From positions 1 through 40,928 of the forward strand of contig CANAZK010000008.1 of assembly GCA_947366105.1 (NCBI GenBank): a DNA stretch of 40,928 bases. Reading direction: 5' to 3'. The notes beneath the pieces are model-generated. The model ran no database searches and was not told the DNA's origin. It was given only the letters and a program-made list of their open reading frames with translations. The position numbers and the translations under genes were made by a program. Positions 7,099 through 40,928 of this stretch are shown here, one piece after another. This stretch comes from an uncultured Lachnospiraceae bacterium (lineage in GTDB: Bacteria > Bacillota > Clostridia > Lachnospirales > Lachnospiraceae). Position 1 is the stretch's first letter; every line of letters begins with the position of its first letter.

Positions 7099-9663
7099 AT
7101 GGCATCTAAGTCAAACAAAACGAAAAAAACTACAAAAAAAACAACACAGTCAGGAAAGTCAAAAAAGCAGAAAGCTGTGAAGGCATCGCAGAATAACTCA
7201 TTTGTAGGCGGAGAGATTATCATTCTGTCTTCATTTGCAGTGTGTGCATTGCTTTTAATCAGTAATTTTGGAGTCGGCGGATTTTTAGGAGGGCTTGTCT
7301 CTTCCTTTTTATTCGGAACATTCGGTCTGCCGGCATATATTATACCAATTATCATTTTTATAGGAATTGCCTTTGTAATATCTAACAAAAGCAATTCCGC
7401 CGCGTACATAAAAGTGGCCGCCGGGGCGGTATTAACGACAATGATCTGTACGTTTATTCAGCTTGCTTCCACATCCTATGACAAATCTTATGGGTATTGG
7501 GATTATTATAAAGCGTCCAGTACAGACAAAAGCGGCGGAGGAATTATAGGAGGCATATTCGTAAAACTTCTTTGTCCGGCAGTCGGAATCGCGGGTACAT
7601 TTGTGATTGTGATTGTGCTGATTATTATCTGCCTTGTGCTGATCACAGAGAAATCATTTCTTCATGGAGTTCAAAAAGGAAGCAAAAAAGCATATGAGGC
7701 GGCGCGTGAGGACGCGCAAAAACGAAGAGAGCATGCAATTGCGCGAAGAGAAGAGCGTGAACATAACAGGGAACTTAAGAGACGTGACAGACAGGTTTCG
7801 GGAGTGTCATTTGATACAACGCTTCCGAAGACTAAACCGGAGGTGAAAGAGATTACGGCTCTGGAGCCGGAGGCGTATGTGCCGGAGATACCGGATATGC
7901 CGCTTGTCAACGAACGGATGGAGATTCCGTTTGGCGGTACGGAGGAGTCTGCAGAACCGGAACATATTGCGTCTGAGGAAGCGTCCGGCGTGAAAGAACC
8001 GGATATGAAACCAATTCAGCCGGAACCGTTTGTTATCAATCGGGCAGCTGTTGAGGAAGAGGCGGAGGCGGCAGTGGAGAATGTCCCTGAGCCTGTTCCG
8101 GTAAAGAAGAAAACTGAAAAGGCGGATATTGCGTCGGAAGTAGCGGACGTGGAGGCGGTGATTGAAGAAGAGAGCCGGAAACAGAAACCGGTTTATCAGT
8201 TTCCGCCGATGAGTCTTTTGAAAAAAGGCAAGAAAAGCGGAGGTGATTCTGACAGTTATCTGCGTGAAACTGCCATGAAGCTTCAGCAGACTCTTAAAAA
8301 TTTCGGAGTGAATGTAACGGTAACCAATGTAAGCTGCGGACCGTCTGTTACACGTTTTGAACTTCAGCCGGAGCAGGGTGTGAAGGTAAGTAAAATTGTG
8401 GGGCTGACAGACGATATCAAGTTGAATCTTGCTGCTACGGATATCCGAATTGAGGCTCCTATACCGGGAAAAGCGGCAGTTGGAATCGAGGTTCCGAACA
8501 AAGAAAATGTGGCGGTCATGCTGAGAGATCTGCTTGAGGCGGAGGAATTCAAGAAGCATCCGTCCAATATTGCATTTGCGGCGGGACGGGATATAGCCGG
8601 CAAGGTGGTTGTAGCGGATATAAAGAAGATGCCTCATGTATTAATTGCGGGCTCCACAGGTTCCGGTAAGTCAGTCTGTATCAATACGCTTATTATGAGT
8701 ATTTTATATAAAGCCAATCCGGACGACGTGAAATTGATCATGGTAGACCCGAAGGTGGTGGAGCTGAGCGTATATAATGGCATTCCGCATCTTATGATTC
8801 CGGTTGTGACCGATCCGAAGAAGGCATCGGGAGCGCTTAACTGGGCGGTGGTGGAGATGGAGAAACGTTATCAATTGTTTGCGGAATATAATGTCCGGGA
8901 TTTGAATGGATATAATGAAAAAGTGGAGCAGATTAAAGACATTGAAGACGAGACTAAACCGCAGAAGATGCCGCAGATTGTCATTATTGTGGACGAGCTT
9001 GCGGATCTGATGATGGTCGCTCCGGGAGAGGTTGAGACAGCAATCTGCCGTCTCGCCCAGCTTGCAAGGGCGGCGGGAATTCATCTTGTTCTTGCAACAC
9101 AGAGACCTTCCGTGAATGTCATTACTGGTCTCATTAAAGCCAATATGCCGTCGCGAATTGCTTTTTCTGTTTCTTCAGGTGTGGATTCGCGTACAATTAT
9201 AGATATGAATGGTGCAGAGAAGCTTCTTGGAAAGGGCGATATGCTCTTTTATCCGTCAGGTTATCAAAAACCGGTGCGTGTTCAGGGCTCTTTTGTATCA
9301 GACAAAGAAGTACAGTCAGTCGTAGAGTTTCTTGTAAACAATAACGGCAACGCGTCATATGACGAAGAGATTACGAATCATGTGAACAGCGCGGCTTCCA
9401 ACGTTGCCAGCGCAGCCCAAGGGGCGTCAGGAGGGGATGAAAGGGACATGTATTTTGCAGATGCAGGTCGCTTCATTATAGAAAAAGATAAGGCATCCAT
9501 AGGTATGCTGCAAAGAGTATTTAAAATAGGTTTTAACCGGGCGGCCCGCATCATGGACCAGCTTGCAGAAGCAGGGGTTGTCGGTGAAGAGGAAGGAACG
9601 AAGCCAAGAAAGGTACTGATGTCTATGGAAGAATTTGAACAGTACATAGAAGAGTACATCTAA
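7099..9663 (+). CDS. FtsK/SpoIIIE family DNA translocase
   Basis: N-terminal TM helices, Walker [31 protein letters not shown], Walker [15 protein letters not shown]-terminal gamma winged helix. Confidence 0.97.
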
Positions 9664-38254: not shown

Positions 38255-38872
38255 ATGCGAGGTAAGGAAATGCTCGAAAATAAATTGGGTATCACAGATT
38301 CAGCAGAATTGGCAAGAGCAGAAGAAAAAATCAGCAAGCTAAAAGCTGTCGAAATGTTTGAAATCGGATTTTTGGAAAAATTGGAACCTGGAACATATAG
38401 AAGTCTTGCAATGATTCATAAATATCTATTTGATGAAATCTATGATTTTGCAGGTAAGCTTCGAAAGGTCAATATCTCAAAAGGAAGTTTTAGATTTGCG
38501 CCGCTTATGTATTTGGAAGCGGCGTTACGGGGTATTGATAAAATGCCGCAGTCTACTTTTGATGAAATCGTTGAAAAATATGTAGAAATGAATGTTGCAC
38601 ATCCGTTTAGAGAAGGAAATGGAAGAAGTACAAGAATATGGCTTGACTTAATGTTGAAGAAAGAGATTGGTTATGTAGTTGACTGGAGCAAGGTTGATAA
38701 AGAGGATTATTTGCTTGCCATGGAGCGAAGCCCCATAAAAGATATTGAAATTAAGTTTCTTTTGAAAAATGCGCTGACAGATAGTATTCATGATCGGAAA
38801 ATTTACATGAAGGGCATTGACCACAGTTACTACTATGAAGGTTATTATGTATTTAAGACCGAAGAGCTATAA
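38255..38872 (+). CDS. Fic family protein (class III-like)
   Basis: HPFREGNGRSTRIW active site; C-terminal SYYYEG fits the [S/T]xxxE[G/N] inhibitory motif; alternative ATG at 38270. Confidence 0.92.
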   Translation: MRGKEMLENKLGITDSAELARAEEKISKLKAVEMFEIGFLEKLEPGTYRSLAMIHKYLFDEIYDFAGKLRKVNISKGSFRFAPLMYLEAALRGIDKMPQSTFDEIVEKYVEMNVAHPFREGNGRSTRIWLDLMLKKEIGYVVDWSKVDKEDYLLAMERSPIKDIEIKFLLKNALTDSIHDRKIYMKGIDHSYYYEGYYVFKTEEL

Positions 38873-38886
38873 AGGAGGAACGACTT

Positions 38887-39048
38887 ATGGATCCAATTGA
38901 CTTAATACGAGATAAGTTCTCACAGGACTGTACGGTTGATACAGTCTTACATTTGCTCATGGCTCATTTCGATCTAACCAAAGAAGAAGCGCAGGCTAAG
39001 ATCGATGAGTATTTTGAAATTGTGGAAGGATACAGTAATATGCCCTGA
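38887..39048 (+). CDS. 53-aa ORF not in the supplied track: MDPIDLIRDKFSQDCTVDTVLHLLMAHFDLTKEEAQAKIDEYFEIVEGYSNMP
   Basis: Strong RBS aaaggagg 9 bp before the ATG; 14 bp after the Fic stop; plausible helical composition. Confidence 0.65.
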   Translation: MDPIDLIRDKFSQDCTVDTVLHLLMAHFDLTKEEAQAKIDEYFEIVEGYSNMP

Positions 39049-39113
39049 TGAAGATATGTCCGGGATAGTCAGGCTCTGTTGGGCACTGAGAAAGGAGCTG
39101 TAAAGTTAAAAAT

Positions 39114-39581
39114 ATGACAGAAAGACAAAAACTAATTGCACAGAAATTAGCCATACAATCCGCTAAAAACAAGCTAAAGCAGCTATGCGGCGTCACTGTA
39201 TCAGAGCTTTACGAAGAAAACCAAAATCCGGCCTTGAACGAACTGACCGCAGCATATCTTTCTACATTTGCGGATAATCCAGAACCATACAGCAGGCTGC
39301 CCTATAAATCTTCCGAAGAAAAGATCTGCTCATGGATCATTGACACTATGGAACTAAAAGAACAGGGAGAGTATTTTTATTACTGCGGTTTATGGAGCAA
39401 AATTAAACTATTAGATCTAAAATGCGCTGTGGCCTCTTTGTGGCGGAGGGAGAAAAACGTGTCAGGTTTTTTGTTTGCGGAAACAGATTTAAGCCGTATG
39501 ATGGAATGCGGTCTTGATTCCCGGGATGAGTACCATTTTTTAATCGACATTTGGACTTTGGGACACAGTGTCTGTCTTTAA
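39114..39581 (+). CDS. Hypothetical protein, 155 aa
   Basis: Complete ORF in a tight gene cluster; no recognised motif. Confidence 0.6.
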   Translation: MTERQKLIAQKLAIQSAKNKLKQLCGVTVSELYEENQNPALNELTAAYLSTFADNPEPYSRLPYKSSEEKICSWIIDTMELKEQGEYFYYCGLWSKIKLLDLKCAVASLWRREKNVSGFLFAETDLSRMMECGLDSRDEYHFLIDIWTLGHSVCL

Positions 39582-39601
39582 TTACATTTAGGAGGGATAT
39601 C

Positions 39602-40252
39602 ATGGCAAAACGACCGGTATTTTTTATCCGTCAGAAAAAAGTTGTACAGGATTTATTTTCATTTGAATGGTTTCCTGGATTTTCAATATCTCAAAAGCAA
39701 AAGTCTATAGAAAGTCTGCATCATGCAATCCTAAAAGCAGATGCAGACGCAAGGCCATTAGAAATCAGCACGAAGAGCAAAGACGCTATCGGAGTAAAAT
39801 TAAGTGCATTCAATCTCAGGTTAAATAACTATACTCTCGAGAATGTTTTTCAAAGTGCTAAAGTTTTTGCAAACGGCGGTCCTTATCCTGATTTACTCAA
39901 TGTGCCGCCGAAAGCGGCCAAACGGGATGAACGGCTGCATAATTCTGGAAACCTAAAAGCTTTTCGTTATCAAAATGAGGATTTTCCTTTAATTCCCAAA
40001 ACAGTATTCTATGATTTCATCTATATTGCTGCGGTAAAAAATTCATTCACAGCGGACGAAATCAAAGAAATTTCAAGTTATAATTACTTTACCGATATTG
40101 AGTTTAATCCTACGAAAAGCATCAATACTCAGGCGAGAGCTGCTGCGATGATCAGACTTCTGCTTGATGAGTATGGGGATTTACCGGATTTTTTAAAAGA
40201 GGATTTTATACAATATCACAAAGAACATATCGTTTACGATACCTTGATTTAG
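39602..40252 (+). CDS. NADAR-like protein of the DarT1-associated type (putative DNA/nucleotide ADP-ribose glycohydrolase)
   Basis: RBS taggaggg; VKLSAFNLRLNNYTLENVFQSAKVFANGGPYPDLL resembles the NADAR S.F......E..FQ..K pattern; FEWFPGFSISQKQKSIESLH and DERLHNSGNLKAFRYQNEDFPLIPKTVFYDFIYI as recalled from DarT1-linked NADAR proteins. Confidence 0.6.
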   Translation: MAKRPVFFIRQKKVVQDLFSFEWFPGFSISQKQKSIESLHHAILKADADARPLEISTKSKDAIGVKLSAFNLRLNNYTLENVFQSAKVFANGGPYPDLLNVPPKAAKRDERLHNSGNLKAFRYQNEDFPLIPKTVFYDFIYIAAVKNSFTADEIKEISSYNYFTDIEFNPTKSINTQARAAAMIRLLLDEYGDLPDFLKEDFIQYHKEHIVYDTLI

Positions 40253-40267
40253 AGAGGAGCTAGTATC

Positions 40268-40669
40268 ATGGATTTACAAGAGAGCGCATTTGCGCTTGCC
40301 AGGCACCTTCACGATGAAAATATTATAAAACTGGATGATTTGAATCAATTAAAAAATGAGACTTATGAGGAAATTGTTTTATTAATCAGGCAAAAACTTC
40401 AAGAAACCTATCCGCAGACAAAATTAAAACGCATGATGAAAAGCGTTCATTTTGCAAACGGTTTCTCGGATGAGCGCATGAAACGGGGTGCGTTTATTCT
40501 CACGGATGAAATTGAGCAATATCTGACTTTCAATAAATTCCTTGACCACGATGCATCTGTTGAATTTTTTAATAATAAAATTACCTCTACCGGTTTTGTC
40601 ATAAATCCAACTTCTCTAGTCGAGGTTGAATTTGAAAGCCTATGCATCTGCAAAGGGCGGAAAATGTAA
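40268..40669 (+). CDS. Hypothetical protein, 133 aa, cotranscribed with the NADAR-like gene
   Basis: RBS agaggag; 15 bp after the NADAR-like stop. Confidence 0.6.
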   Translation: MDLQESAFALARHLHDENIIKLDDLNQLKNETYEEIVLLIRQKLQETYPQTKLKRMMKSVHFANGFSDERMKRGAFILTDEIEQYLTFNKFLDHDASVEFFNNKITSTGFVINPTSLVEVEFESLCICKGRKM

Positions 40670-40928
40670 AAGGAGATTATTCGTATGTTAGAAAATAAAC
40701 ATCATTTTGAATTTCTTCAATTGTATAAGACTTTCCTTTTTATAAAATGCTTATGGCTTCATTTAAAGTTGATGATGAAAGAAACCGCTTTTACGAGATT
40801 TAATGAAGAATTCTATTGTGGAATTTAGTTACATGAATGAAAAACGTCCGATTACTTGGTGATTAAACAGAATGATAAATTCTTTAGGTTAGAATCGATG
40901 ATGGGGTAAACGAAAAAGCAGTTTTGAC

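What the first reader, a model, noticed from the sequence alone, without database searches (positions are those of the whole stretch)
39114..40669. NADAR-like gene between two unknown ORFs, with no DarT toxin visible
The 39602 product looks like a DarT1-associated NADAR (predicted to remove ADP-ribose from guanine in DNA). In described DarT1-NADAR modules the partner is a DarT-type ADP-ribosyltransferase. Neither neighbour (155 aa, 133 aa) shows a DarT-like motif that I can see, yet all three have strong RBSs and ~15-20-bp gaps. Either one neighbour is a new partner or toxin, the toxin is just beyond the window, or the NADAR acts as an orphan anti-toxin/anti-defence enzyme. Proximity to an R-M operon and Fic suggests a defence island.
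Basis: partly seen in the sequence, partly recalled or inferred. Interest (0 to 1): 0.7.

Follow-up and report, generated by a model that had tools for sequence, protein, structure and literature searches.

The report
Toxin-less NADAR in decaying immunity cluster
A gut bacterium carries an enzyme of the kind that normally removes a DNA-damaging tag made by its own partner toxin, but here, as in every gut relative found, the toxin is missing, and the gene sits among remnants of genes that protect bacteria from their neighbours' toxins, so it is probably a stand-alone shield.

Summary
39602-40252 encodes a DarT1-type NADAR (Pfam NADAR-DarT1, E 1.2e-75), flanked by intact ORFs of 155 and 133 aa with 20- and 15-bp gaps. 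No DarT or DarT remnant was found in the window or its assembly (85% complete). The contig ends 259 bp after the 133-aa ORF, but relatives answer the question. Of 40 loci found in genomes, 38 were scored and none has DarT1 beside the NADAR, while 13 of 13 plasmid controls have DarT immediately upstream. The gut NADARs form one supported clade. Catalytic residues are kept and dN/dS is 0.09-0.20, so the enzyme is maintained without a partner toxin. The neighbours are not hidden toxins: relatives of either exist in genomes without this NADAR. Comparison of close relatives gives an ancestral cluster Imm68 - ORF155 - NADAR - ORF133 - SUKH-1, with different members decayed in each genome. The window keeps an Imm68 tail (39038-39102) and a SUKH-1 remnant (40685-40825). 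Distant ORF133 relatives lie beside SUKH-1 and DUF1877 genes. Best reading: a decaying polyimmunity locus whose NADAR is an enzymatic shield against guanine ADP-ribosylation. The locus is well supported; the function is inferred. A new variant of a known kind.

The parts
39602..40252 (+). DarT1-type NADAR (216 aa), intact, predicted guanine-ADP-ribosyl hydrolase
   Evidence: PF22397 E 1.2e-75; 8BAT E 8e-46; equivalents of E. coli C7 E88/K95/K115/D171 are E80/K87/K107/D165 and conserved in 42 of 42 orphans, with one K107R; dN/dS 0.09-0.20
39114..39581 (+). ORF155, intact small protein of unknown family, member of the cluster; predicted immunity-type gene
   Evidence: No family match; directly upstream of NADAR in L015, L016, L048, tail remnant in L014; dN/dS 0.12-0.23; distant relatives in G603 (29% identity) and as C-terminal domains in G112
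40268..40669 (+). ORF133, intact small protein of unknown family; predicted immunity-type gene
   Evidence: No family match; downstream of NADAR in L014, L015, L016, L048, L053; relatives of 53-54% identity in L074-L076 lie among SUKH-1 and DUF1877 genes; dN/dS 0.15-0.22
39038..39102 (+). 3'-end remnant of an Imm68 gene
   Evidence: 65 bp, 80% identical to the end of the intact Imm68 gene of L015, E 2e-13; that gene is PF15583 at 1.1e-41
40685..40825 (+). Internally deleted remnant of a SUKH-1 (SMI1/KNR4) gene
   Evidence: Three pieces matching residues 1-18, 112-128 and 175-194 of the intact 194-aa L016 gene, E 6e-7 to 1e-9; that gene is PF09346 at 1.6e-8
38255..38872 (+). Fic protein upstream of the cluster; not linked to the NADAR in relatives
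   Evidence: PF02661 7e-13, PADLOC PDC-S04 8e-102; no gene clustering with it lies beside NADAR in the other loci

Best explanation
The three genes are the surviving part of a polyimmunity (orphan-immunity) cluster, ancestrally Imm68 - ORF155 - NADAR - ORF133 - SUKH-1, in which NADAR is an enzymatic, partner-free shield. It would hydrolyse ADP-ribose off guanine bases of DNA (and possibly RNA) after a foreign ADP-ribosyltransferase has modified them, restoring the nucleic acid instead of binding a particular toxin. Shown here: NADAR family and intact catalytic set, absence of DarT1 across the clade, purifying selection, cluster membership with Imm68/SUKH-1 genes, decay and reshuffling of members. 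Inferred: the enzyme is active on guanine-ADP-ribose; the natural attacker is a guanine-modifying toxin from competitors (source and delivery unknown); ORF155 and ORF133 are immunity proteins for other toxins.
For: NADAR profile, structure-family match and catalytic residues. DarT lies between 8 bp overlapping and 22 bp upstream of NADAR in all 13 plasmid controls, and in none of 45 Clostridia NADAR loci examined (two weak hits in L023/L024 are KptA). 38 gut NADARs, all without DarT1, form a clade supported 100/98, whose nearest outside row is a DarT1-linked NADAR of Acetoanaerobium. dN/dS 0.09-0.20. Imm68 is intact 4 bp upstream of ORF155 in L015, SUKH-1 intact 15 bp downstream of ORF133 in L016, and remnants of both are in the window. 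A NADAR-less version ORF155 - ORF133 - SUKH exists in G066. ORF133 relatives lie next to SUKH-1 and DUF1877 genes in three other genomes. The 94-aa gene c1 that precedes NADAR in 13 other loci has distant relatives inside SUKH-containing arrays. NADARs reverse guanine ADP-ribosylation by DarT1 or by the unrelated toxin ScARP on DNA and RNA (PMC11543638, PMC11833690); polyimmunity loci combine SUKH, Imm68 and others and usually lack toxins (PMC3482391).
Against: No genome holds all five cluster members intact, and the Imm68/SUKH link comes from one closely related set of clusters, so it may be one evolutionary event. Most other gut NADAR loci have no recognised immunity family next to them: among 71 adjacent proteins only 1 Imm68 and 2 SUKH-1 were found, besides unrelated and housekeeping genes. 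No LXG toxin passes the cut-off in nine host genomes, and no attacking guanine ADP-ribosyltransferase was identified. In E. coli, NADARs of some other subfamilies were poor at rescuing from DarT1 although active in vitro (PMC11125620), so activity does not guarantee protection.
Confidence: 0.55

Rival explanations
1. Anti-addiction / anti-DarT1: the orphan NADAR is a retained antitoxin that neutralises DarT1 carried by plasmids, phages or other incoming elements, letting the cell shed or resist DarTG1 modules.
For: The clade's nearest outside relative is a DarT1-linked NADAR; DarT1-NADAR pairs are common on plasmids; non-cognate NADARs rescue from DarT1 (PMC11543638); the K115 equivalent, needed for rescue from DarT1, is kept in 41 of 42.
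Against: No DarT1 found in 39 genomes carrying these NADARs; the three DarT matches above cut-off are DarT2-type with macrodomain partners. Does not explain the Imm68 and SUKH neighbours.
Confidence: 0.18
2. Cell-own function: NADAR repairs endogenous or accidental guanine/ribosyl adducts or processes NAD-derived or riboflavin-pathway metabolites, as proposed for YbiA-type NADARs.
For: Purifying selection without a toxin; several loci lie in housekeeping surroundings, e.g. an NAD synthetase-like gene 57 bp upstream in L037, Maf and DUF1015 genes in L041-L043.
Against: Patchy: 4 of 144 other relatives searched have the family. Broken or partial copies in L048, L118, L128 and G152. Context changes from genome to genome, and DNA homology ends at the gene borders.
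Confidence: 0.14
3. Hidden toxin-antitoxin pair: ORF155 or ORF133 (or c1 in other loci) is a new toxin neutralised by NADAR.
For: Tight spacing and conserved order in window, L015, L016; c1 precedes NADAR in 13 loci as one block of about 943 bp.
Against: ORF133/ORF155 relatives occur in genomes without this NADAR: G066, G110, G143, G324. ORF133 is intact beside an internally deleted NADAR in L048. c1 is missing beside NADAR in the window group, and distant c1 stands without NADAR in L119 and L122. No ART-like family match; c1 has only 94 aa, short for a known ART.
Confidence: 0.06
4. Relic: the NADAR is a drifting leftover of a lost DarTG1 system inside a decaying island with no current role.
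For: Neighbours Imm68 and SUKH are remnants, and NADAR copies are broken in several genomes.
Against: One clade of 38 diverged copies keeps every catalytic residue, with dN/dS 0.09-0.20.
Confidence: 0.07

Closest known systems
DarT1-NADAR (DarTG1) toxin-antitoxin system, E. coli C7 / Geobacter lovleyi (PMC11543638)
   Same: NADAR subfamily, catalytic residues, Pfam family, sequence match to 8BAT
   Different: No DarT1 toxin; DarT1's usual upstream place is taken by ORF155; cluster of immunity-type genes
Heterogeneous polyimmunity loci (PMC3482391) and AID/rAID orphan immunity arrays of gut Bacteroidales (PMC12247911)
   Same: Short co-directional genes with tight gaps, Imm68 and SUKH-1 members, no toxin gene, changing gene content
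   Different: Contains a NADAR hydrolase; small and partly decayed; in gut Clostridia; no tyrosine recombinase seen in the window
Enzymatic immunity by ADP-ribosyl hydrolases: Imm-ARG (PMC3482391) and bacterial PARG against RhsP2 (PMC11833690)
   Same: Would neutralise a toxin by reversing its ADP-ribosylation
   Different: NADAR fold and guanine base instead of protein or ribose 2'-OH linkages; protection not tested for this clade
Stand-alone NADARs of E. coli (sigma70-linked, YbiA) and YbiA-YarT of myxobacteria (PMC11125620)
   Same: NADAR without DarT1, known in other subfamilies
   Different: Those belong to other subfamilies; this one is of the DarT1-linked (BC4488) subfamily

Membership tests
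DarT1-associated (BC4488) NADAR subfamily | Match to the subfamily profile PF22397 | tested here: met
   E 1.2e-75, 254 bits against cut-off 27
DarT1-associated (BC4488) NADAR subfamily | Catalytic E88, K95 and the subfamily-specific aspartate D171, plus K115 (E. coli C7 numbering) | tested here: met
   E80, K87, D165, K107 in the window; spacing E-K 7 and K-K 20 as in E. coli C7; invariant columns in 13 DarT1-linked rows (residues from PMC11543638)
DarT1-associated (BC4488) NADAR subfamily | Hydrolyses guanine-linked ADP-ribose | not testable with these tools
   Needs purified protein
DarTG1 toxin-antitoxin system | DarT1 toxin gene in the same operon | tested here: not met
   No DarT in the assembly (84.6% complete), none in six frames of the window, none in orthologous loci
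Heterogeneous polyimmunity locus | Several tandem, co-directional genes of different immunity families | tested here: inconclusive
   Window: Imm68 and SUKH-1 only as remnants, ORF155/ORF133 unnamed. Relatives: Imm68 intact in L015, SUKH-1 intact in L016, never all five intact
Heterogeneous polyimmunity locus | No associated toxin gene | tested here: met
   No toxin family recognised among cluster genes in window, L015, L016, L081
rAID orphan immunity array | Tyrosine recombinase and conserved intergenic motifs | not tested
   Contig ends at 40928; gaps of 15-20 bp show no shared motif beyond ribosome-binding sites by eye

The most novel reading that the evidence does not exclude
DarT1-type NADARs have, in one clade of gut Clostridia, left the toxin-antitoxin role and become a stand-alone enzymatic immunity family, exchanged as small cassettes (alone, with the 94-aa c1 gene, or inside Imm68/SUKH clusters) that protect cells from guanine-ADP-ribosylating toxins of competitors; this implies an undescribed class of such toxins in the gut.
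Probability: 0.4. Interest if true: 0.72.

Novelty: new variant of a known kind. Interest (0 to 1): 0.5.

Why it matters
NADARs of this subfamily are known as antitoxins of DarT1. A supported clade that keeps the enzyme without the toxin suggests that reversing guanine ADP-ribosylation is useful by itself in the gut, which points to attackers not yet described. Known immunity proteins mostly bind one toxin; an eraser enzyme could protect against any toxin that makes the same lesion. The role of NADARs outside DarT1 operons is stated as open in the literature (PMC11543638) and becomes testable with a handful of genes.

Tried and rejected
AlphaFold2 models of ORF155 and ORF133 were too poor to use (mean pLDDT 41.6 and 52.8), so no fold search was run. 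PDB profile searches with ORF155, ORF133 and c1 gave nothing. ORF155, ORF133 and NADAR have no relatives in IMG/VR by pattern scan, and NADAR has none in phage records, so a phage-borne anti-DarT1 gene is not supported. Weak DarT1-profile hits in L023/L024 were KptA/Tpt1. DarT found in three NADAR-bearing genomes was DarT2-type with macrodomain partners. LXG toxins as the likely attackers: none above cut-off in nine genomes. A general enrichment of immunity families around all gut NADARs was not seen, so the immunity argument is limited to the window-type cluster and to relatives of ORF133 and c1; no matched control set of distant genes was scanned.

Full report
What is there. The window is one whole contig of an assembly of 2.70 Mb in 209 contigs, 84.6% complete; its nearest NADAR relatives are all Lachnospiraceae. 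At its right end are three intact co-directional genes: 39114-39581 (155 aa, ORF155), 39602-40252 (216 aa, NADAR) and 40268-40669 (133 aa, ORF133), with gaps of 20 and 15 bp. The middle protein is a DarT1-type NADAR by profile (PF22397, 1.2e-75) and by sequence match to the solved Geobacter lovleyi NADAR (8BAT, 8e-46). The catalytic set defined in E. coli C7 (E88, K95, D171) and the lysine needed for rescue from DarT1 (K115; PMC11543638) correspond to E80, K87, D165 and K107. ORF155 and ORF133 match nothing in Pfam, PADLOC or NCBIfam above cut-off, and only chance-level PHROG matches.

Is the toxin really missing? PF14487 finds no DarT in the assembly, and a DarT1 profile built from 12 plasmid DarT1 proteins finds nothing in the six frames of the window even at E 10. 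Because the contig ends 259 bp after ORF133, relatives matter more. One scan of GTDB genomes gave 40 loci with relatives of this NADAR. As positive controls, 13 plasmid loci from Lactococcus to Acinetobacter were read: in all 13 a DarT lies immediately upstream, from an 8-bp overlap to a 22-bp gap. In 45 Clostridia loci, including the window, no DarT1 is present; two weak hits were KptA. Some of these loci have short flanks because contigs end, but DarT1 would lie directly upstream. In 39 genomes carrying such NADARs, three have a DarT above the cut-off, each next to a macrodomain gene, i.e. DarT2-type.

History. A maximum-likelihood tree of 55 NADARs puts 38 gut sequences, all without DarT1, in one clade (support 100/98). 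Its nearest outside row is the DarT1-linked NADAR of an Acetoanaerobium plasmid. The simplest reading is that the partner was lost at the base of this clade; other orphans (L095, L096, L097, L100) lie elsewhere in the tree. All 42 orphans keep the catalytic residues (K107 is R in one), and dN/dS between the window and seven relatives is 0.09-0.20. The enzyme has therefore been maintained without its toxin.

Neighbours. Among the closest relatives, ORF155 directly precedes NADAR in L015, L016 and, damaged, in L048, and its last 28 codons remain in L014; ORF133 follows in L014, L015, L016, L048 and L053. In L015 an intact Imm68 gene (PF15583, 1.1e-41) ends 4 bp before ORF155; in L016 a SUKH-1 gene (PF09346, 1.6e-8) follows ORF133 after 15 bp. 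The window holds remnants of both: 65 bp of the Imm68 3' end at 39038-39102 (80% identity, E 2e-13) and three pieces of the SUKH-1 gene at 40685-40825. So the ancestral order was most likely Imm68 - ORF155 - NADAR - ORF133 - SUKH-1, and members have been lost piecemeal, often by internal deletions (Imm68 in L016, NADAR and ORF155 in L048, SUKH in the window, L053 and L055). G066 has ORF155 (truncated), ORF133 and a SUKH remnant with no NADAR in between, and no such NADAR anywhere in its genome.

Outside this group, relatives of ORF133 with 53-54% identity lie in other genomes next to SUKH-1 genes and DUF1877 genes. In 13 further gut loci NADAR is preceded instead by a 94-aa gene, c1; DNA homology in these loci spans about 943 bp, from the c1 start to the NADAR stop, and in most pairs then stops. 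Distant c1 relatives lie in arrays with SUKH genes (L121, L122). In contrast, a scan of 71 proteins adjacent to gut NADARs gave few recognised immunity families (1 Imm68, 2 SUKH-1) and many unrelated genes. The immunity argument therefore rests on the window-type cluster and on relatives of its neighbours, not on all gut NADARs.

How it most likely works. NADARs hydrolyse guanine-linked ADP-ribose on DNA and RNA, including modifications made by the DarT-unrelated toxin ScARP (PMC11543638, PMC11833690). Polyimmunity loci are clusters of immunity genes, usually without toxins, with SUKH and Imm68 among the members; when they were defined, the only enzymatic immunity protein known was an ADP-ribosylglycohydrolase (PMC3482391), and bacterial PARG has since been shown to protect against an RNA-targeting ART toxin (PMC11833690). 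By analogy, this NADAR would erase ADP-ribose from guanine after attack. Activity, attacker and delivery route are inferred. No LXG toxin was found above cut-off in nine host genomes, so the source of attack is unknown.

Rivals. Anti-DarT1 activity against incoming elements is the strongest rival, since K107 is conserved and the clade derives from among DarT1-linked NADARs. A cell-own repair or metabolic role fits the purifying selection but not the patchiness and breakage. A hidden toxin among the neighbours is contradicted by genomes that carry ORF133 or ORF155 relatives with no NADAR (G066, G110, G143, G324) and by L048. A pure relic is contradicted by selection.

Verdict. The case is a new variant of a known kind: a DarT1-type NADAR without DarT1, inside a decaying immunity-type cluster.

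Noticed in passing
L020-L027, L030, L034, L046, L050, L051 (c1-NADAR block about 7690-8630 in most): A 94-aa gene of no known family (c1) precedes NADAR with about a 25-bp gap in 13 gut loci; DNA homology mostly covers only c1 plus NADAR, as if the pair moves as a cassette.
   Followed up: partly
L019:8704-9117: A rifampin ADP-ribosyltransferase (Arr, PF12120 7e-48) lies 65 bp downstream of NADAR in Sporofaciens musculi, an ART-fold neighbour that is not DarT.
   Followed up: no
L023:6897-7466 and L024:5053-5607: KptA/Tpt1 RNA 2'-phosphotransferase genes (ART fold) lie on the opposite strand upstream of c1-NADAR.
   Followed up: no
L126:3825-5661: In G667 the NADAR follows a Cro/C1-type regulator and an ImmA/IrrE-like metallopeptidase gene, next to ylxM-ffh-rpsP-rimM-trmD; in G126 (L100) another NADAR lies just after trmD in the same kind of neighbourhood.
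   Followed up: no
L037:6030-7943: A glutamine-dependent NAD synthetase-like gene ends 57 bp upstream of NADAR in an Oscillospiraceae genome; L035 has a related gene upstream.
   Followed up: no
L009:703-2068 (pIL105): Lactococcus plasmid pIL105, from the literature on the abortive-infection gene abiD1 (PMC2661086), also carries a DarT1-NADAR pair, the NADAR annotated only as hypothetical.
   Followed up: partly
L048:7564-8427, L016:7373-7502, window:40685-40825: Cluster genes often decay by clean internal deletions that keep both ends; the two pieces overlap by a few bases in L048, suggesting short repeats at the junctions.
   Followed up: no
L118:1520-2209: The L016 genome holds a second, broken copy: c1 followed by a NADAR fragment running into transposase-like sequence.
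   Followed up: partly
window:31430-37409: LlaJI-type restriction-modification operon (DNA methyltransferase-like gene, AAA protein, RE_LlaJI) followed by a MerR/TipAS regulator and a Fic protein of PADLOC candidate PDC-S04.
   Followed up: partly
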